Assembly: GCA_038888615.1 (NCBI GenBank)
Contig: JAWAID010000002.1
Coordinates: 627,654-691,653, forward strand
Direction: 5' to 3'
Source of the DNA: Candidatus Korarchaeum sp.
Lineage (GTDB): Archaea; Korarchaeota; Korarchaeia; Korarchaeales; Korarchaeaceae
DNA length: 64,000 nucleotides
Under the pieces are notes generated by a model. That model was not told the origin of the DNA. It saw nothing but the letters and a program-made list of their open reading frames with translations, and searched no databases. Numbering within the stretch: position 1 is the first letter of the stretch; every line of letters begins with the position of its first letter. Position numbers and translations under genes: made by a program. Positions 2,965 through 13,344 of this stretch are shown here, in pieces.

Positions 2965-3434
2965 TGCGCAAGTTCATCCCGATACTGATCCTACTATTTT
3001 TACCTTCAACAGCTCTCCCATATGAGCACAGCTGCTACCTCCTGACGCTCTCCGACGCCGATAGCGGGAGGCTGATATACTCGGCCTGCCTATACGATGG
3101 GGAGTGTCTGACTTACGATTGGAAGAACTCCCTATACGGGCTCAACGTAACTGAGGTCTTCTCCGTTTGGAACGGGTCCCTGGTCCTGATGGAGATAGTT
3201 TACCACGATCCTCACGGGAACCCCGAGCCCCTAGCGGATCCCGATGACCTCGAGTACCTCTGCCATCAGGGCGGGCCTTTCCGGGCGACGAACGTCTCCA
3301 AGGCCTACGCTGAGATATCGCTCATGGTGGGTAGGGTGGGAAAGCCGAGGGTATCTGTGAGGGACCGGACCTTGGACCTCGATTCAGAGGTCGGGTTCGG
3401 TGGTAGGGTGATCCTGAGGATCTCTCGTAGCTAA
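2964..3434 (+). CDS. DUF1850 family secreted protein
   Basis: A 156-aa exported protein with an N-terminal signal peptide (about residues 1-19, IPILILLFLPSTALP). Its GTG start overlaps the receptor stop codon by one base (TAGTG), so it is translationally coupled. DUF1850 proteins are regular companions of TRAP-TAXI genes and their role is unknown. Several Cys residues (about positions 24, 41, 48 and 99) could form disulfides outside the cell. Assignment rests on context and overall sequence style more than on a sharp motif. Confidence 0.7.
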   Translation: MRKFIPILILLFLPSTALPYEHSCYLLTLSDADSGRLIYSACLYDGECLTYDWKNSLYGLNVTEVFSVWNGSLVLMEIVYHDPHGNPEPLADPDDLEYLCHQGGPFRATNVSKAYAEISLMVGRVGKPRVSVRDRTLDLDSEVGFGGRVILRISRS

Positions 3435-3463
3435 CTTTTTAACCTGGCGGTTCAGTTGGACCT

Positions 3464-5020
3464 ATGAGGGAGCTCATCGCAGCTCTGATCCTGATCTCAT
3501 TGGTCGTGAGCTGCTCATCAGCGGCCTACTTGATCAACGGCGACTTCGGTAGGTTGGAGGTGAGGTCCCTCGAGCTTGCTCAGGGGAACGGAAGGATCTC
3601 AGCTATCATTTACATCCCTAAGGGGGTCGAGAAGGTGCCAGCAGCGGTTTTAGTGCATGGTGTTAGCAGCTCCAAGGAGTCGATGAGCGCCATAGCTTTG
3701 GAGCTAGCTAGGAGAGGGGTCGCCTCACTCTGCATAGACGTCCATGGGCACGGCGATTCGGGAGGTTATCTCAATCTATCATCCGACCCGACGCTCGGGC
3801 TGAGCGTAGCCCTCGATTATCTGAGGCTCCAGCCCTTCGTGGATCGTGGATCTACAGCCCTTGTGGGCCATAGCCTGGGGGCCTCGGCGGTGAGGAGCTC
3901 AGCTGACCGGGGGGCCGTGGCTCACGTCCTCATAGGGGGAGGGGCCTCGTCGCGCTCGGCGGCTCTCGGGAACGCGACCTTCCCGAGGAACCTGCTGATC
4001 GTCGTGGGAAGGGGAGATGTTCTTTTCGACTTGGAGAAGCTTAAGGATGAGCTTGTCCCCACCTTCGGGTCCGAGGTAGAGGTGGGAAGGTTTTACGGGG
4101 ACTTCGAGAGGGGGACCGCCAGGAAGCTAGTGGTCCCAGCGACTACCCACTTACTGGAGCCCTACGATCTCACGACCGTCTCAGAGGTGGTCGATTGGGT
4201 GCTCAGGTCGGTGGGTAGGGGGTTCGAGGTCAGGGGCCTGGTTTACCCCTACAGGGACCTGCTCATGCTCGTCTCCCTTCTCTCTCTGCTTCTGCTAATC
4301 TTCCCGATCTCAAGCGCTCTCCTGAAGGGAGGTGAGATCGAGGAGCCGGAGGCATCCCTCCGGAAGGCGCTCGTCGCTTGGGGCCTTCCCAGCTTCCTCC
4401 TGTTCTTCCCATCCTTCTTGATCGGCTTGGCGATCCCCTTCCCCCCTGTGCTCTTCGCGAACTCGATAGCCATATGGTTCTCCCTTTCCTCCGCCTACGG
4501 TCTCCTACTCGGGAGGAAGAGGCTTATAAGGCCCCGATTCGGACTCTCAGACCTCTCGGTATCTATAGCAATCTTCCTAGTGATTTACTCAGTGATCTCA
4601 TCCCTGAAGTTCGTCTACGGGATGAACCTCTGGCTTTACGTACCCCCGTTGAGGACCTTGGACCTGAGGAGGGCCCTCCTGCTCCTCTACCTCCTCCCCT
4701 TCTCCCTGTGCTTCTTCTACGCCGAGAGCCTCCTGTTAGTGGGGAGGAGCCTCGCTAAGCTGCTGTGCGTCAGGCTTCTCCCCATGTCCTCAGCTCTCCT
4801 GCTGCAGTACGCTTCGATCTTCGCTTTCAATTTCAAACTCCTCCCCTCCCTCCTCGGCTTCTCCCTGGAGTTCCTCCCGCTCATGCTACCGCTCTTCGCG
4901 CTCTCCACAGCGGTCATATGGTGGTTCAGGAAGCTCGGTTCACCTTCAGCCGCCATGTTGGTGAACTCGTTGGTCTTCTCATGGGCCTCGGCTAGCGTCT
5001 TTCCATTCGGTGGTCTCTGA
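3464..5020 (+). CDS. Membrane-anchored alpha/beta hydrolase
   Basis: A 518-aa two-part protein. After a signal peptide (residues 1-20) comes an alpha/beta hydrolase domain (about 30-250) with the oxyanion region VLVHGVSSSKES, the DVHGHGDSGG strand-loop, the nucleophile elbow GHSLGAS and a C-terminal His candidate in ATTHLLEP. The second half (about 270-510) has around seven hydrophobic segments. The active domain would face the outside, so a surface peptidase or esterase is likely; the substrate is unknown. A TATA-like CTTTTTAA at 3435-3442 lies 26 bp before the ATG, pointing to a leaderless mRNA. Confidence 0.8.
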   Translation: MRELIAALILISLVVSCSSAAYLINGDFGRLEVRSLELAQGNGRISAIIYIPKGVEKVPAAVLVHGVSSSKESMSAIALELARRGVASLCIDVHGHGDSGGYLNLSSDPTLGLSVALDYLRLQPFVDRGSTALVGHSLGASAVRSSADRGAVAHVLIGGGASSRSAALGNATFPRNLLIVVGRGDVLFDLEKLKDELVPTFGSEVEVGRFYGDFERGTARKLVVPATTHLLEPYDLTTVSEVVDWVLRSVGRGFEVRGLVYPYRDLLMLVSLLSLLLLIFPISSALLKGGEIEEPEASLRKALVAWGLPSFLLFFPSFLIGLAIPFPPVLFANSIAIWFSLSSAYGLLLGRKRLIRPRFGLSDLSVSIAIFLVIYSVISSLKFVYGMNLWLYVPPLRTLDLRRALLLLYLLPFSLCFFYAESLLLVGRSLAKLLCVRLLPMSSALLLQYASIFAFNFKLLPSLLGFSLEFLPLMLPLFALSTAVIWWFRKLGSPSAAMLVNSLVFSWASASVFPFGGL

Positions 5021-5029
5021 GGTGGTGCC

Positions 5030-5326
5030 ATGTACGAGCTCTTAGTGGTCATAGAGGAGGTCAGGGGGAGGTGCGCAGCCGGCTACAAGCCCGGCGACCG
5101 GTTCCTGATGAGGGGCTTCTACCTGGAGAGGATGCAGGAAGCCAGGGTATGCCTCCATGCCCTCTCATCCATGCTCACCCTCGTATCCCCAATGCTGAAG
5201 GGGGTGCCGGCCGAGGCCCTCGGCGTGGGGAGCGGGGACCTCGCTTACGTCCAGTGCCCGGACCCGGGACCCCCTGTGACCTGCGGAGGTACTGTGGTCT
5301 TCAGGCTCGTGAGGAGGGAGGTTTAA
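5030..5326 (+). CDS. TIGR04076 family protein
   Basis: Small cytosolic protein (98 aa) of a family found in anaerobic archaea and bacteria, without a known function. Family hallmarks are the N-terminal VIEEVRGRCAAGYKPGD, the central CLHALSSML and the C-terminal CPDPGPPVTCGG followed by a hydrophobic strand. The conserved cysteines suggest metal or redox chemistry, but this is inference. GAGGTGGTGCC before the ATG is a good ribosome site, and the gene starts 9 nt after the hydrolase gene, so the two form one unit. Confidence 0.8.
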   Translation: MYELLVVIEEVRGRCAAGYKPGDRFLMRGFYLERMQEARVCLHALSSMLTLVSPMLKGVPAEALGVGSGDLAYVQCPDPGPPVTCGGTVVFRLVRREV

Positions 5327-5358
5327 TTGGGACCCGGTGATCAGCCGAGGGTGATCGC

Positions 5359-6054
5359 TTGAGGGCCGTGTCCTTCGACCTCTGGTTCACGCTGATATGG
5401 GAGACGAAGGAGGACGAGGAGCTCTACGTCAGGATGAGATTGGAGTCCCTCAGGAGCTTCCTGAGTGAGGAGGGATACGAGGTGCCTTTGGATGTCCTCA
5501 GGAGCGTTTACTCAGCCACAAAGGACTTCAGGATGGTGGTCCATCCGAGGGAGCTCTTGAGGATGCTCCTCACTCGCATAGGCTTTGAAGTGAGCGATAG
5601 GTCCCTGGAGAGGGCTTTACAAGCTTACGTAAGCTCAACAGACGGCTTCATCCCCAGGGTCAACGAGGAGGCCCTCGAGGTGCTCCCGGAACTCAGGTCC
5701 ATGGGGTTGAAGCTGGCTCTGGTGACGAACACCTCCTTCAGCCGGAGGAGCGTCAGGGCCATCCTGAGGAACGTGGGACTCGACCTTTTCGACGCAGTGA
5801 TCACATCATGCGAAGCGGGATTCATGAAGCCTCAGAGAGCCATCTTCTCGATGCTGCTCGATGAACTGGGTTTGGAGGCTTCCCAGGTGGTACACGTGGG
5901 TGACTCCTGCTATCATGACGTGATAGGGGCTGCTAACGCCGGTCTCAGGGCCTTGCACTACCCTAAGTTAGCCCATCTGAGGGGTGTCGATGACTCCTGC
6001 CCTGGTTTCGAGAGCATAGGGAGCTTGGGCGAGCTGATGAGGGTCTTGCGTTGA
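5359..6054 (+). CDS. HAD superfamily hydrolase
   Basis: Haloacid dehalogenase-type phosphatase (231 aa). Motif I is FDLWFTL, with Asp6 as the expected nucleophile; motif II is the Thr of VTNTS; the motif III Lys is in FMKPQ; motif IV is HVGDSCYHDV. A helical cap lies between motifs I and II (about residues 20-95). It starts at TTG 5359, backed by GAGGGTGATC at 5348-5357. In motif I the usual second Asp (DxD) is replaced by Trp, as in many HAD members that are dehalogenase-like or of unknown substrate. Substrate not predictable. Confidence 0.85.
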   Translation: MRAVSFDLWFTLIWETKEDEELYVRMRLESLRSFLSEEGYEVPLDVLRSVYSATKDFRMVVHPRELLRMLLTRIGFEVSDRSLERALQAYVSSTDGFIPRVNEEALEVLPELRSMGLKLALVTNTSFSRRSVRAILRNVGLDLFDAVITSCEAGFMKPQRAIFSMLLDELGLEASQVVHVGDSCYHDVIGAANAGLRALHYPKLAHLRGVDDSCPGFESIGSLGELMRVLR

Positions 6055-6094
6055 GGCCCCTGAGCTGGCCGAGTGATAGGGTCAGCGCGGAAGC

Positions 6095-7069
6095 TCAGTA
6101 ATCCTCTCTGGTGAGGAGCCAGGGGTTCCCTATGTGCACTCTGGTCAATCCCTCCTCCCTGGCGACTCTCTCAGCCTCTAGAGCGTGCCTCCTGCTCGTC
6201 TTAGGCAGATCCGTCATCAGGAAGCTTGGATGAAAGGCTAGCAGGCTGTAAGGGGTTTCGGGATTTACGGAAGCTATGAACTTGGCTATCATCCTCACCT
6301 CCTCCTCGTCCACGTAGCCCGGGACCAGTAGGGTGCTTGCCGTGAACAGAGGGACCTCTTTCCTCTCCTCGGATAACCTGAGGGCCTCCCTAGCGTTCTC
6401 GTAAACCATGCCGAGCTCTCTCCCGGTGAGGGCCAGGTAGACCCCGGGGTCCCAGGCCTTCAGGTCGAACTTCACGTTCCCTCCGCTCCTCATGGCGACT
6501 TCCAGCACTGCCCTGAAGGTCCTGCCGTTCAGGTGCCCGTTCGTCTCCCAGCACACCCTCATTAAGCTGGTCCTCCTCATCAGCTCCTTCGCTACGAGGA
6601 GGGCGTTGGCCACTTGAGGAGCTGGGTCCCCGCCGAAGAAGCAGACGCAGGTGACGGGATAACTTAAAGCAGCCTCAACGACCTTTTTAAAGCTAACTAG
6701 GGGCCTCTTGCTTAATGTAAGCTTTCTGAAGAACCAGTTCTGGCAGAAGAAGCAGTCTAAGTTGCAGGCCCCGTAGAAGACGGCCAAGTTATAGTAACCG
6801 AGTTCAGGTCCATCTCTGAGGGTCCACTTAGGGTATCCCAAGCCCGTGGAGGCTGGACAGAACCAGTGAGCTACGCAGTTGGTGGGTATGGGGTCGTAGT
6901 AGTACTCCAGGATCCCGTACTCAGGAGCTCCGGCCAGGTTGACCAGCCTACCCTCGTCGTTCATCACCAGCCCGCAGTACCCCACTCCCCCCTCCGGGAT
7001 CACGCAGTCAGCATCGCAGAGCCCGCATCTGACCCCCCTACCCCTGGGAGGCTCCGGCGGGAGGCCCAT
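6095..7069 (-). CDS. Radical SAM protein, AmmeMemoRadiSam/PflA-like
   Basis: Radical SAM enzyme (324 aa from the ATG at 7069) related to pyruvate formate-lyase activating enzymes. The 4Fe-4S motif is CNLDCFFCQNW (CxxxCxxC), followed by FFGGDPAP and WETNGHL, the usual SAM-binding landmarks. An N-terminal Cys motif CGLCDADC...GYCG precedes the barrel. Its target is unknown. The frame stays open upstream and encodes a CxxC...CxxC knuckle without any standard start codon (next entry), so the true N terminus is probably about 46 residues longer. It is divergent from the nitroreductase gene. Confidence 0.85.
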   Translation of the reverse strand: MGLPPEPPRGRGVRCGLCDADCVIPEGGVGYCGLVMNDEGRLVNLAGAPEYGILEYYYDPIPTNCVAHWFCPASTGLGYPKWTLRDGPELGYYNLAVFYGACNLDCFFCQNWFFRKLTLSKRPLVSFKKVVEAALSYPVTCVCFFGGDPAPQVANALLVAKELMRRTSLMRVCWETNGHLNGRTFRAVLEVAMRSGGNVKFDLKAWDPGVYLALTGRELGMVYENAREALRLSEERKEVPLFTASTLLVPGYVDEEEVRMIAKFIASVNPETPYSLLAFHPSFLMTDLPKTSRRHALEAERVAREEGLTRVHIGNPWLLTREDY

Positions 7070-7208
7070 CCTAGCCCTCTCCCTCCTGTGGGCCGAGAGA
7101 GCGTGCTCACTGGCCTTGGGATCGCTCCTCAGGCACTCCAGACAGACCCCCAGCGTAGCGGATATGAGGGGGGAGGACCTACCGCAGACGACGCACTCCC
7201 CTATACAT
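7070..7208 (-). other. Likely missing N-terminal zinc knuckle of the radical SAM gene, with a frame shift
   Basis: In the same frame as the gene, this stretch encodes CVVCGRSSP...GVCLECLR, a CxxC-x(n)-CxxC knuckle. No ATG, GTG or TTG occurs in frame before a stop. An ATG at 7208 in the neighbouring frame sits about 30 bp from a TATA-like box. If the GGGG run (minus strand, 7198-7201) had one G fewer, the ATG would read MYRECVVCGRSS straight into the gene. This is a sequencing error, a real frame shift, or slippage. Confidence 0.55.
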
Positions 7209-7229
7209 ACCCCCCGTGTTCACCGCGCT

Positions 7230-7244
7230 TCCCTTTTTATCTTA
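7230..7244. promoter_or_regulatory. Bidirectional TATA element between radical SAM and nitroreductase genes
   Basis: CTTTTTATCTTAAG reads as a TATA box on both strands. Its centre is about 25 bp from the ATG at 7262 (plus strand) and about 30 bp from the ATG at 7208 (minus strand). One element could serve both leaderless transcripts. Confidence 0.5.
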
Positions 7245-7261
7245 AGCCCGCTCAAGCGCGT

Positions 7262-7840
7262 ATGCCGGACATATTCGACGTCCTCGCTGAGAGGAGAAGC
7301 GTGAGGAGTTACACGGGGGAGGAGGTCAGCGAGGAACATCTGAACATAATACTGGAGGCTGCTTGCTGCGCTCCCTCAGCCGGTAACCTTCAGGCTTATG
7401 AGATAGTCGTCGTTAGGGATCCGGAGAGGAGGAAGCTCCTAGCTAAGGCCTCATACAATCAGGACTTCATGGTGGAGGCTAGCGTCCACCTCGTCTTCCT
7501 GGCCCTGCCATCGAGGTCGGCGGTCAGGTACGGCAGGAGGGGGGAGGAGCTCTACTCGCTGCAGGACGCCACGATAGCCGCTACCTTCGCGATGCTAGCA
7601 GCTCACGCCTTAGGCTACGGGACCTGTTGGATAGGTGCCTTCGACGACTCGAGGGTGATGAGGGTGATCGAGGCTCCCGCCGACAGGAGACCAGTGGCCA
7701 TAATAGTGATAGGGAAGGGGAGAGGGGAGGAGGGACTCACGAGGAGGAGGAAGATGGGGAGCTTCGTCTTCTCGGAGAGGCACGGGGTGCCCTTCGAGCA
7801 CAGGCCAGCGATGAGCAAGCTCATGAGACCGGGTTGTTAA
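7262..7840 (+). CDS. Nitroreductase family protein
   Basis: FMN-dependent nitroreductase-like oxidoreductase (192 aa). The N terminus is typical: RRSVRSYTGEEVSEE, then CCAPSAGNLQAYEIVVV, and the C-terminal GYGTCWIGAF that packs on the flavin. The ATG at 7262 is chosen because a TATA-like TTTTTAT lies 25 bp upstream and homology starts there; the open frame further upstream overlaps the divergent gene and has no merit. Physiological substrate unknown. The C terminus ends in a free Cys. Confidence 0.88.
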   Translation: MPDIFDVLAERRSVRSYTGEEVSEEHLNIILEAACCAPSAGNLQAYEIVVVRDPERRKLLAKASYNQDFMVEASVHLVFLALPSRSAVRYGRRGEELYSLQDATIAATFAMLAAHALGYGTCWIGAFDDSRVMRVIEAPADRRPVAIIVIGKGRGEEGLTRRRKMGSFVFSERHGVPFEHRPAMSKLMRPGC

Positions 7841-7888
7841 GATCTTTGCGGGAACGCTTATAATGGGTTCACGCTCATAGGACTTGCG

Positions 7889-8266
7889 ATGTTGAAGTTG
7901 AAAGATGAGTTGTTTTACTACGCTATAGCCGGGGCCTCCCTGGGCGATTTGGTCTGGATAGCTGCTGAGATGACGATCTCCATCCTCGAGTTATCCATCG
8001 TGACCTCACTAGTGATATCAGCTATCTCCTCAATCTCTCACGATTTGGAGGAATCTATACCACTTCTACTCTCATTCTTAGTTCCCTTCTTCACCATCCA
8101 AGTCCTACTGAGCTTCTGGTACCTCTCTAGCATCAGTAACTCATTGAAGCTCAACTTCCTCTCCGGTTACCTCCTGGCGACTTCGATGCTCAGCTCCCTC
8201 GCGTTCTCAGCTTCCTTCTTACTTTTCTCACTCATCTTCAGGTTCGCTTTCGAGTTTCTTAAGTAG
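7889..8266 (+). CDS. Small hydrophobic membrane protein
   Basis: Protein of 125 aa with about four hydrophobic segments (roughly residues 8-28, 34-55, 60-85 and 95-122) and few charges. I do not recognise a family. TTATAATG at about 7858-7865 lies 28 bp before the ATG, fitting a leaderless transcript, which supports it as a real gene. No functional link to its neighbours is evident. Confidence 0.55.
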   Translation: MLKLKDELFYYAIAGASLGDLVWIAAEMTISILELSIVTSLVISAISSISHDLEESIPLLLSFLVPFFTIQVLLSFWYLSSISNSLKLNFLSGYLLATSMLSSLAFSASFLLFSLIFRFAFEFLK

Positions 8267-8455
8267 TTTTCAGCGCCCTCCTAAGGTTCTGCGCTGAGCG
8301 TGCGAATGGCAGAGAATTAGCTATACTAATGACTAGCACCTCTGAGTCACTTGACTGATCTCGAATGGGGCTACGGGTTTATCCAGGGCGCTCCAAGGGG
8401 TCTCATGAGGCTCAACGAGGGTAAGGTTAATTAGAGGTATATAGCGTATTTATTG

Positions 8456-9295
8456 ATGTCGTTAGCGGATGATCTTCTCAAAGAGCTCGAGAAGAACCCG
8501 GAGTTAGCCAAGAGATTTGCTAGAAAACTGATCGAGTACATAGAACCTGAGCTATCCGTTCCCGTTCAGATAGGCAAGTTAGTTGAGCAGATGAACAGGG
8601 TCGCCGAGGAGCAGAAGAGGCTCAGGGAGGACTTTAATGAGATGCTGAAGAGAGTTGATAGGAATACTAGGGCTATCACTCAGCTCAGAGGAGCTATTAG
8701 AGGGCTTTTGGAGGCTCAAGCCAAGTCTGAGGAGAGATTGAGTAGGCTGGAGGTAGCCGTAGAGAGGAATGCCGAGGCGATAACTAAGCTGAGTAAGGCT
8801 GTGGATGAGCTCAGGGAGGCTCAAGCCAAGTCTGAGGAGAGATTGAGTAGGCTGGAGGTAGCCGTAGATAGGCTGGTCACTGCTGTAGCCGAGCTGAGGG
8901 TTGAAGTGGGCAGGCTATCCGATACAGTGGGCTACGGGCTTGAGGACATAGCCAGGATACTTGTGCCCCCCTGGCTCGAGAGGCTCCAGGGGGTTGAGCT
9001 CGTGAGCGAGCTCAGGAGGGAGTTCCTGAGGCTGGATGGGGAGGAGGTCGAGGTTAACCTATACTCTGAGGGGAAGAAGGAGGGCAGAGATGTACGCGTC
9101 TTAGGTGAGGTGAAGTCCAGGATCTACGGTGGAGACGTTAGAAGGCTTTACAATAACGCTGTGAGCCCCTTGAGGAGGGCTGGCTTCGAGGTAATCGCGT
9201 TCATGGTCGGTTACGTCGTCCATCCCTCGGCGAGGGAGGAAGCCGAGAAGTTAGGCATCTCAGTCATAGCTGCCTACGAGTTCAGGGTGCTTTAA
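8456..9295 (+). CDS. Coiled-coil protein with PD-(D/E)XK nuclease-like C terminus
   Basis: A 279-aa protein of a type common in thermophilic archaea (DUF3782-like). Residues about 40-160 form a long coiled coil. The C-terminal domain contains EVEVNLYSEGKKEGRDVRVLGEVKSRI in outline, whose last part, an acidic residue followed by E-x-K (GEVKSR), fits a PD-(D/E)XK nuclease core. Two exact 54-bp copies in the coil encode the same EAQAKSEERLSRLEVAV stretch. ATG 8456 is preferred to TTG 8453. It stands just before the distal end of the CRISPR array; a link with DNA processing is possible but unproven. Confidence 0.7.
   Translation: MSLADDLLKELEKNPELAKRFARKLIEYIEPELSVPVQIGKLVEQMNRVAEEQKRLREDFNEMLKRVDRNTRAITQLRGAIRGLLEAQAKSEERLSRLEVAVERNAEAITKLSKAVDELREAQAKSEERLSRLEVAVDRLVTAVAELRVEVGRLSDTVGYGLEDIARILVPPWLERLQGVELVSELRREFLRLDGEEVEVNLYSEGKKEGRDVRVLGEVKSRIYGGDVRRLYNNAVSPLRRAGFEVIAFMVGYVVHPSAREEAEKLGISVIAAYEFRVL
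8710..8868 (+). repeat. Exact 54-bp direct repeat inside the coiled-coil gene
   Basis: Copies at 8710-8763 and 8815-8868 are identical, with a 105-bp period (35 codons, five heptads). This indicates recent lengthening of the coil by tandem duplication or recombination. Confidence 0.9.
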
Positions 9296-9472
9296 CGAGT
9301 CCATTCCTGAGGGAGGATGGAGCTCAAATCTCTAATGAAATCCCCATCCCGTTGGGCTTGACGGTTGCTCATGATGGGTATAAGTCCCTTTGAGCGAGGA
9401 GTCCCCAGATGCTAAGGACATCGGCGGTCGAAAATGGGTGCCTGGGGAGAGAGTGAGGTCACTACAGTAGCA

Positions 9473-12400
9473 CTCTCAACTCCCTCTTCGGGATTCCAGT
9501 CTTGAGAGGAGTATCTGTACCGTGACTGTAAGTCTGCTCTTTCAACTCCCTCTTCGGGATTCCAGAGCTCCATCAAGTGAGCGACTATGAAGCCGGTAAG
9601 CGTACTTTCAACTCCCTTTTCGGGATTCCGAGAGATGCTAACCTCTATGTCGTTGTAATATCTGGATTCACTTTCAACTCCCTCTTCGGGATTCTGAGGA
9701 CCATGAGGTCGAGGACTACATTATTGGCAATCTCTTTCAACTCCCTTTTCGGGATTCAGAGCGTGGAGAGTGTGGGAAGTGGATTGTTTTTGCCCGTGAC
9801 TTTCAACTCCCTTTTCGGGATTCTTCACGAAGAATACATTAACGGAAAGAGAAGGCGAAAACTTTCAACTCCCTTTTCGGGATTCGGTGTTAAACGCACC
9901 CAGCGCCACTCTCTCCAGACTCTCCTTTCAACTCCCTTTTCGGGATTCAATCCATGAAGAGTAGGACTGCATCAAAATTACGGTTTATCTTTCAACTCCC
10001 TTTTCGGGATTCTAACACAAGTCATGGCGTAATAGTTGCCGTAGGCAACACTTTCAACTCCCTTTTCGGGATTCAGGAGAGACACAGAGCAAAGCGAGGG
10101 AGCGTCATAGCACGTACTTTCAACTCCCTTTTCGGGATTCCGAGGTATCACGAGTTCCCGCTTTATACCACCGTATCAACTTTCAACTCCCTTTTCGGGA
10201 TTCAGTTCTACACACAGTTCAAGCCGCACCTTGAGGCAGGTCTAGCTACTTTCAACTCCCTTTTCGGGATTCTTTCTGTGCTTGAAGTTCAGCTGAAACC
10301 GTTGATGTCTTTCAACTCCCTTTTCGGGATTCAGATGTACATCACGTGTACAGCTACGAGCCCGGCAAACGAACTTTCAACTCCCTTTTCGGGATTCAGG
10401 TTGAAGTTAGTGCTTACGTTGACACAAACACTGTTTGCGCTTTCAACTCCCTTTTCGGGATTCAAAGATTACAAATACGTCACAGCAAAGCACGATTTCA
10501 TACTCCACTTTCAACTCCCTTTTCGGGATTCGATTCTTCCTCTCTCCTCCGTCAGCACTCTTTTAACGTAATGTTCCTTTCAACTCCCTTTTCGGGATTC
10601 AATACCGGTGAGGGAGCCGCTTACTTCTCTTTGACAAGACTTTCAACTCCCTTTTCGGGATTCCATAATTGTAATTATTGTCATAGCTCCACCTCCCTAC
10701 TCTGCTCTTTCAACTCCCTTTTCGGGATTCCAACTCATATCCCAGCGAACAGGGTGGAGGTAAAGCTATTTCCTTTCAACTCCCTTTTCGGGATTCCGTA
10801 CCACCTGATATTCTATACCTCTTTCTGTCTCATCTTTCAACTCCCTTTTCGGGATTCTGCAGCAGTCATACCTAGGGTACTCGTTAGGCTTGAGAACTTT
10901 CAACTCCCTTTTCGGGATTCGGAGAAAAATGAGCAGCAGCCTGCAATGTGACGAAAACACGCCTTTCAACTCCCTTTTCGGGATTCGAGGATCACCGCAG
11001 GTGCGGAGAGGAGAGGGACAAGCTTCCTTTCAACTCCCTTTTCGGGATTCCGAGTGGGCGGCTTACATGGACGCCCATTATGAAAACTCTTTCAACTCCC
11101 TTTTCGGGATTCAGGAGATAGAAATGTATGGTTAGAAGGGAATGTTTCAATCTTTCAACTCCCTTTTCGGGATTCTACTTCCGTTCACCTTATTCGTGAA
11201 CTTCAAGCTGAAGCTTTCAACTCCCTTTTCGGGATTCAGAAGCTTTCCAGTAGCAAGATTCTGTATCAACACGTCACGTAACGCTTTCAACTCCCTTTTC
11301 GGGATTCACATCCAACGCCTCCGGCCAATCCCTCAACGTTGCGAAAACTTTCAACTCCCTTTTCGGGATTCTGACTATGAAGCTTATCATGTCCGAGATT
11401 CCCGGTAACTTTCAACTCCCTTTTCGGGATTCCTCCATCCTCACCCACCTCCTCTTTAGTACAGGATAAGCTTTCAACTCCCTTTTCGGGATTCCCCCTA
11501 TACCCCCCGTTGAGGGGGGCAGTGCTGGGGTCCTTTCAACTCCCTTTTCGGGATTCCGTGAAATGGCTTGGCCATGGTAATGCGGATATTCTAACACTTT
11601 CAACTCCCTTTTCGGGATTCACGGGAGCGTGGGTAGATGTAAGTGTCGCCGCTAACGTACCTGCCTTTCAACTCCCTTTTCGGGATTCGGAGGTGATGGT
11701 ATGAGCTACGCCGCTCTCTCCGAATTGCTTTCAACTCCCTTTTCGGGATTCAGAAAGTGGGAGACGGAGCAGATCGAGAGCTCCTCACTCATACTTTCAA
11801 CTCCCTTTTCGGGATTCGGGATTTGAGGAGCTAGTAGAAAGAATAGCGGCAATAATACTTTCAACTCCCTTTTCGGGATTCCTCCAATCGTCTCAATGCT
11901 GAACATACAACCCCAGGTCACCTTTCAACTCCCTTTTCGGGATTCTTGACGTATTCGGCGACGCACTCAACGACGTGGATTATTCTTTCAACTCCCTTTT
12001 CGGGATTCTGAAGGACACCTTTGTTCCGTAAGGCACCGTTATTGAGAACTTTCAACTCCCTTTTCGGGATTCTTTTTGTATAGTAAAAAAACCCCATCCC
12101 CGGAGTCCTTTCAACTCCCTTTTCGGGATTCATAGTTAACAACTTGGCAGCTATTGTGAGCGAAGATGACGTCTTTCAACTCCCTTTTCGGGATTCCTCA
12201 GGATAGGCAATGAGACGGGAACACTAGTTATCTTCCTTTCAACTCCCTTTTCGGGATTCTTGGAAGCCTCACAATCTCACGATCGTGAACCCCTTAAGCA
12301 CTTTCAACTCCCTTTTCGGGATTCCGGCCGTCACGCCGGCCGTGGCGACGGCCGTGGCGACTTTCAACTCCCTTTTCGGGATTCCTAGTCTAATTTTGGG

Positions 12401-13100
12401 GGTGATGTGATGGCGGACGAAATAAGAACTTTCAACTCCCTTTTCGGGATTCCCTTTTGTACAGAAGATACGCAGTGGAGGAGATGTTATGACTTTCAAC
12501 TCCCTTTTCGGGATTCTTGGAGCAGAATTGTTTGGATTTACGGCCGCCAGCTTGGCGGCCGTAACTTTCAACTCCCTTTTCGGGATTCCGAAATCCTCGT
12601 ACTTACCTCTCTTTTTCTCTAATGAGCTCTTTCAACTCCCTTTTCGGGATTCCGATATGACGGAACCCCAGGAGAACCAGGAGAAGAGTGTTCTTTCAAC
12701 TCCCTTTTCGGGATTCTGGAGCTAGCTGGCATCGAGCTGAGGAGGAGGTGGTAAAACTTTCAACTCCCTTTTCGGGATTCCCCTCTCCTCTCAGGCCCGC
12801 TCGAGCTCGGGGTCACGGCAGCTTTCAACTCCCTTTTCGGGATTCCTTTCATAAGGGAATCGCCGGTCATTCATATGTATAATCACACTTTCAACTCCCT
12901 TTTCGGGATTCAGAGCTGTAAAACCTGATAAGGACATCCAGGATTTCTTCCTTTCAACTCCCTTTTCGGGATTCTCTTCACAGAGCCTTCTCACGGCCGT
13001 ATTCTCGAATGCTTTCAACTCCCTTTTCGGGATTCTGGAGAGAAGGGCCTTCACACTCCCCTTCCTGAACTCGTGGCTTTCAACTCCCTTTTCGGGATTC
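9473..13100 (-). CRISPR. CRISPR array, 57 repeats of 24 nt, transcribed on the minus strand
   Basis: I count 57 copies of a 24-nt repeat starting at 9473, 9539, 9605, 9671 and so on to 13077, with 56 different spacers of about 36-48 nt. Read on the minus strand, the repeat starts GAATCCC and ends GTTGAAAG, the usual archaeal crRNA 5' handle, with a short stem from CCC and GGG. Copies at 9473, 9539 and 9671 carry a C in the TTTT tract, and 9473 has a second change. Degenerate copies mark the old end, so the leader is on the right, which agrees with the AT-rich promoter region at 13101-13205. No cas gene lies in the window; the Cas proteins must act from elsewhere. The 24-nt size and handle fit type I-A or III systems of thermophilic archaea. 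Confidence 0.98.
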
Positions 13101-13205
13101 CGATGCCATGATCCCCCGCTTCACTATAAATAGTTTACGGGAAGGGTAATATTTTTGACACCCCTTCGCTGCTACGCGATCTGCGCCCCACTATATAAAT
13201 AGCAG
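13101..13205 (-). promoter_or_regulatory. CRISPR leader with two similar TATA-like elements
   Basis: On the minus strand CTATTTATAG (13122-13133) is centred 28 bp from the first repeat, so the pre-crRNA would start at that repeat. A second copy of the element, CTATTTATATAG, sits at 13189-13202. Both are followed by a similar GTGRRGCG string, so the promoter block seems duplicated about 69 bp apart. Confidence 0.6.
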
Positions 13206-13344
13206 CGAATCGTTAATCTGATGACTTAAGTTACATACCAGCGTTCGTCGGCGTACCTCAGTCCGAAGCTACGCTAACCTCTGAGCCACTGCCCAGGGCT
13301 GGACCCTAAGTTTATTTATTAGCTCCTCTCGGGGAGTAAGGAGA

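What the first reader, a model, noticed from the sequence alone, without database searches (positions are those of the whole stretch)
9563..10373. Two CRISPR spacers come from the same gene of two diverged genetic elements
Spacers 9563-9604 and 10333-10373 align over 41 bases with about 27 matches. Read in one frame they encode ELHQVSDYEAGKR and DVHHVYSYEPGKR. Most changes in the shared codons fall in third positions (TAT/TAC, GAA/GAG, GGT/GGC, AAG/AAA, CGT/CGA), the mark of a protein-coding target under selection. The host seems to have sampled the same viral or plasmid locus at least twice from related but different elements. This identifies a protein family of an unseen parasite.
Basis: partly seen in the sequence, partly recalled or inferred. 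Interest (0 to 1): 0.75.

Follow-up and report, generated by a model that had tools for sequence, protein, structure and literature searches.

The report
Related CRISPR spacers from diverged parasites
A hot-spring archaeon (probably Korarchaeum) has stored two immune-memory sequences that look like the same 13-residue stretch of a protein from two distantly related parasites, cut at exactly the same place; this is ordinary CRISPR behaviour seen unusually clearly, and the parasite itself was not found.

Summary
Spacers 9563-9604 and 10333-10373 match at 27 of 41 bases when aligned at the leader-side (PAM) end. That is the best long match in the 56-spacer array (0 of 200 shuffles reach it). Read in one frame they give ELHQVSDYEAGKR and DVHHVYSYEPGKR; 8 of 14 differences fall at third codon positions and five codon changes are silent. 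If all 255 spacers of the genome and every offset and frame are searched, the pair is only borderline. Two other facts carry weight: the ends align exactly, and the genome holds stronger pairs of the same kind (EWAAYMDAHYEN/EWATYMDTHYEN; a trio encoding [IV]RERKH[IV]FW). Nearly identical overlapping spacers reveal the motif CCN beside the target in 5 of 5 cases, the adaptation motif of type I-A systems in Sulfolobales. The likeliest history is separate acquisitions at one conserved CCN site in homologous genes of diverged elements. "Same gene" is less certain than "same domain": the peptides fit helix 3 and the turn of Cro/C1 (XRE) regulators, but 13 residues cannot decide. No protospacer was found in viral contigs, genomes, phages, plasmids or Korarchaeia.

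The parts
9473..13100 (-). CRISPR array, 57 repeats of 24 nt (crRNA sense GAATCCCGAAAAGGGAGTTGAAAG), 56 spacers of 35-48 nt; repeats degenerate at the left (old) end
13101..13232 (-). leader; nearly identical to the leader of the array at G000:C2:618608, so new spacers enter at the right end
   Evidence: the two leaders printed side by side; compared by eye
9563..9604 (+). spacer A (second oldest); + strand in frame reads ELHQVSDYEAGKR; crRNA is the complement of this sense
10333..10373 (+). spacer B (12 spacers younger); + strand in frame reads DVHHVYSYEPGKR; ends at the same homologous base as spacer A
11051..11088 (+). spacer encoding EWAAYMDAHYEN; homologue EWATYMDTHYEN is a spacer of another array (L009:1622), same PAM-side end, 33/38 identical
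11495..11532 (+). spacer homologous to a spacer of array L011 (4603), acquired from opposite strands (TPALPPSTGGI / TSAAPPSTGGI, 29/38)
12781..12821 (+). spacer homologous to a spacer of the C1 array (897777), opposite orientation, 29/36

Best explanation
The two spacers are independent acquisitions, well apart in time, at the same conserved protospacer site in homologous coding sequence of two diverged mobile elements. The PAM was probably 5'-CCN in crRNA sense. Adaptation picked the same CCN site in both and measured about 41 nt from it, so the PAM-side ends coincide. Protein-level selection on the target kept the amino acids alike while silent positions drifted, and 14 mismatches would probably leave the older spacer useless against the second element, so a new spacer was worth keeping. 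Shown: similarity, coding pattern, common end, similar pairs elsewhere in the genome, CCN beside overlapping protospacers of the same repeat family. Inferred: that these two targets had CCN, that interference fails across 14 mismatches, and the nature of the target. The best guess for the target is the helix-3/turn segment of a Cro/C1 (XRE) type regulator (about 40%).
For: End-aligned similarity and shuffles. Codon-position bias and five silent changes. In the 255 spacers of five arrays at least nine related pairs, where a shuffle gives scores of 14 at most, including two more protein-conserved families. CCC, CCT, CCT, CCT, CCA are the bases 5' of five protospacers seen in nearly identical overlapping spacers; type I-A cas genes (Cas7a, Cas5a, Cas8a, Cas3, Cas6) and two Cas1 sets lie in the genome, one with Cas4/Csa1 of subtype I-A beside an array of this repeat family. 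CCN is the adaptation motif of type I-A systems of Sulfolobales, spacer length is measured from the PAM end, and that end goes nearest the leader (PMC4390879), which is the end where A and B agree. XRE fit: in a neutral HTH_3 scaffold the A peptide scores 35.2 and B 31.3 bits, against 12.6 for a masked stretch, 13.3 for a shuffled peptide and 35.7 for a genuine XRE stretch.
Against: No protospacer found anywhere. Genome-wide the translated score is borderline. XRE identity: one of five unrelated peptides with the same motif scores 30.6 in the scaffold, and a profile of korarchaeal XRE domains ranks spacer A joint first but within the shuffle range and does not list B among its best 12.
Confidence: 0.75

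Rival explanations
1. Homologous domain, not the same gene: both spacers come from XRE-type regulators of unrelated elements, alike only because the recognition helix and YExGKR turn are conserved across the superfamily.
For: Of 20 viral contigs with H-x-V-x-x-Y-E-x-G-K-R, 10 are XRE domains. XRE genes of viral contigs found with this motif show up to 26 of 41 bases in common with a spacer (inflated because the search fixed many of those bases). Korarchaeal genomes encode a regulator with VSDYESGRR at this position.
Against: 27/41 with an exact common end is a little more than between the two XRE types seen in viral contigs (23/41). E/D, L/V, H, H/Q at the start are not conserved in the superfamily.
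Confidence: 0.35
2. Chance resemblance of two unrelated spacers.
For: Genome-wide free-frame translated null maxima reach 40-41; local DNA score 13 is within the null.
Against: 0/200 and 0/60 shuffles within the array; 0/1000 end-aligned within the array and 2/300 genome-wide; codon bias p = 0.023; exact end alignment as in the strongest pair.
Confidence: 0.08
3. Duplication of one spacer inside the array followed by mutation.
For: Both lie in one array.
Against: A spacer in the array is not translated, so no third-position bias or conserved peptide is expected; neighbouring spacers of A and B are unrelated; the repeats between them are intact.
Confidence: 0.02

Closest known systems
Type I-A CRISPR adaptation of Sulfolobales (CCN subfamily), PMC4390879
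   Same: CCN on the 5' side of the protospacer in crRNA sense, spacers of about 40 nt, length set from the PAM end, PAM end at the leader side, several arrays served by related adaptation genes
   Different: here inferred in a korarchaeon from overlapping spacers alone, without any known target genome
Spacers against diverging virus populations (e.g. SSV/SIRV in Sulfolobus islandicus, PMC6452263)
   Same: host immunity follows diverging viruses; mismatched targets accumulate with age of the spacer
   Different: there both viruses are known; here two spacers are compared with each other and the parasite is unseen; divergence is larger (14 of 41)
XRE / Cro-C1 helix-turn-helix regulators (Pfam HTH_3)
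   Same: V/I-x-x-Y/I-E-x-G-K-R spacing of helix 3 and turn
   Different: only 13 residues known; the second residue after GKR is predicted G/A/V/D/E (a CCN PAM forces G as first base), not the common P

Membership tests
Type I-A CRISPR-Cas array of the CCN class | regular repeats ending GTTGAAAG/ATTGAAAG with unique 35-48 nt spacers and a leader | tested here: met
Type I-A CRISPR-Cas array of the CCN class | type I-A effector and adaptation genes in the genome | tested here: met
   Cas7a, Cas5a, Cas8a, Cas3, Cas6 and Cas1 beside the C1 array; Cas1 and Cas4/Csa1 (subtype I-A) beside the same-repeat array at C2:605655; none were seen directly beside the window array
Type I-A CRISPR-Cas array of the CCN class | CC at -3/-2 of the protospacer | tested here: met
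   5 of 5 nearly identical overlaps, all of array L011, which shares repeat and leader with this array; not testable at the two targets of the finding
Two samples of one gene in diverged elements | homologous protospacers in syntenic genes | not testable with these tools
   no protospacer found in any collection
Two samples of one gene in diverged elements | coding-type divergence between the spacers | tested here: met
   4/2/8 of 13 by codon position, five silent changes, Fisher p = 0.023
XRE / HTH_3 regulator | whole-domain Pfam match above cut-off | not testable with these tools
   only 13 residues exist; bare peptides give no match
XRE / HTH_3 regulator | residues fit helix 3 and turn better than unrelated peptides with the same motif | tested here: inconclusive
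   A 35.2, B 31.3 bits; controls 30.6, 22.3, 21.9, 21.6, 19.6

The most novel reading that the evidence does not exclude
The korarchaeon's arrays record a so far unseen family of viruses or plasmids whose members share conserved genes: one with H-x-V-x-x-Y-E-x-G-K-R, one with EWA[AT]YMD[AT]HYEN, one with [IV]RERKH[IV]FW. None has a credible match in the collections searched.
Probability: 0.4. Interest if true: 0.55.

Novelty: new member of a known kind. Interest (0 to 1): 0.36.

Why it matters
Spacers compared with each other, with no target genome, here give three things about an unseen parasite: conserved protein stretches, repeated sampling of diverged relatives, and the targeting motif of the immune system (CCN). 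The peptides are concrete baits for finding parasites of this host group in hot-spring metagenomes.

Tried and rejected
An apparent integrated element on G000:C1 (partial hits of several spacers) turned out to be a fifth CRISPR array with another repeat, so those hits are overlapping spacers, not protospacers. The 27 genome hits of the motif are about what chance gives by my estimate (about 30); in-frame ones include a conserved C-terminus in Rubrivivax-type bacteria (VHDVFPYEPGKRF), and only one is XRE. ERKHVFW viral hits are in a 57-aa open frame and in an implausible frame. A phage hit of spacer A (32 nt, 84%, E 0.6) is noise. Spacer folding shows nothing for A and B. Two 20-21 aa peptides assembled from overlapping spacers found nothing convincing in phages (best E about 10). 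The search for related loci refuses queries of 20 aa. In one search one of the joined query pieces carried two extra bases at its 5' end by a typing slip; this does not affect the result.

Full report
What is there. The window carries a 57-repeat CRISPR array at 9473-13100. Degenerate repeats lie at its left end. The right flank (13101-13232) is nearly identical to the flank of another array of the same genome (printed, compared by eye), so the right side is the leader and crRNAs are read from the minus strand (GAATCCCGAAAAGGGAGTTGAAAG, then spacer). Spacer A (9563-9604) is the second oldest; spacer B (10333-10373) is 12 spacers younger. The host sits in a class of 26 held genomes; the single-contig relative G006 of 1,590,757 bases has the size I recall for Candidatus Korarchaeum cryptofilum OPF8, so the window is probably a sister Korarchaeum species (from memory, not tested).

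The observation. A and B agree at 27 of 41 bases with no gap when aligned at the leader-side end. Within the array this is the best long overlap at any offset or strand and none of 200 shuffled arrays reaches it; the translated score of 40 is not reached in 60 shuffles (maximum 38). With ends aligned, 0 of 1000 shuffled arrays reach it; genome-wide it ranks second of 32,385 pairs and is reached in 2 of 300 shuffles. When all frames, offsets and all 255 spacers are allowed, shuffles reach 36-41, so the pair would be borderline if found that way. A short local DNA score does not separate it from chance. Mismatches fall 4, 2 and 8 of 13 on codon positions 1, 2 and 3 (p = 0.023), with TAT/TAC, GAA/GAG, GGT/GGC, AAG/AAA and CGT/CGA silent.

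It is not alone. Four arrays of this repeat family and one of 113 repeats with another repeat (GTCTCAATGAAAAGAGGATTGAAAG) were read: 255 spacers. All-against-all comparison finds at least nine related pairs; a shuffle gives 14 at most. Two further families show the same protein-level conservation: EWAAYMDAHYEN/EWATYMDTHYEN (window 11051-11088 and array L009, offset 0) and a trio encoding [IV]RERKH[IV]FW.

The PAM without a target. Where a spacer overlaps a nearly identical spacer that reaches further, the overhang shows the bases beside the protospacer. For five spacers of array L011 these are CCC, CCT, CCT, CCT and CCA, i.e. CCN 5 of 5 (chance about one in a million if bases were equal). Two weaker cases for the other repeat show TCA. 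The genome holds a type I-A effector set (Cas7a, Cas5a, Cas8a, Cas3, Cas6) beside the 113-repeat array and a second Cas1 with Cas4/Csa1 of subtype I-A beside an array of the window's repeat family. In Sulfolobales type I-A subfamilies use CCN or TCN, spacers are measured from the PAM end, and that end is inserted nearest the leader (PMC4390879). A and B coincide exactly at that end. If both targets had CCN, the coding strand continues NGG, so GKR is followed by an ANG codon (K, T, R or M) and then by G, A, V, D or E.

What the target may be. In viral contigs, 10 of 20 matches to H-x-V-x-x-Y-E-x-G-K-R are XRE-type helix-turn-helix domains, where the segment is helix 3 and the following turn. 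Placed in a neutral HTH_3 scaffold, peptide A scores as well as a genuine XRE stretch and B somewhat less; four unrelated motif-bearing peptides score about 20-22 bits, but one scores 30.6. A profile from korarchaeal XRE domains does not separate A or B from shuffled spacers. Korarchaeal genomes themselves encode a regulator with VSDYESGRR here. I put XRE at about 40% for both. If true, 'same gene' weakens to 'same domain'.

What could not be found. No protospacer of A or B turned up in IMG/VR by several degenerate patterns, GTDB genomes, phage and plasmid records or the 26-29 korarchaeal genomes; spacers of the sister families found none in phage records either nor, for EWAxYMD, in IMG/VR. 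Exact-pattern scans tolerate mismatches only at the degenerate positions, and hot-spring metagenomes were not open to me, so absence is weak evidence.

Verdict. It is a clear instance of known CRISPR biology, raised somewhat by the exact common end, the parallel families and the motif inferred from spacers alone.

Noticed in passing
G000:C1:895405-902600 (L098 about 3405-10600): A 113-repeat array with a different repeat beside cas1, cas2 and cas4 and a type I-A effector set; several of its spacers overlap protospacers also sampled by the arrays of the window's repeat family.
   Followed up: partly
L011:2443, G000:C1:900969, G000:C1:896766: Three spacers of two repeat families encode [IV]RERKH[IV]FW, a conserved stretch of an unknown parasite protein.
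   Followed up: partly
window 12517-12564 and 12325-12360: Two G+C-rich spacers contain inverted repeats; 12517-12564 forms a 12-bp perfect hairpin (-22.4 kcal/mol, z -5.9), suggesting a terminator- or origin-like protospacer.
   Followed up: no
window 8453-9295 and L098:17049-18047: Two related coiled-coil proteins with internal repeats (AQAKSEERL[ST]RLE) and a similar C-terminus; one lies next to the window array, the other about 6.5 kb from the C1 array. Only coiled-coil matches in Pfam.
   Followed up: partly
G000:C1:896003 and C1:900969: Spacers of the second repeat family show TCA at the 5' side in overlapping spacers, which hints at a TCN motif for that system (two cases only, one of them diverged).
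   Followed up: no
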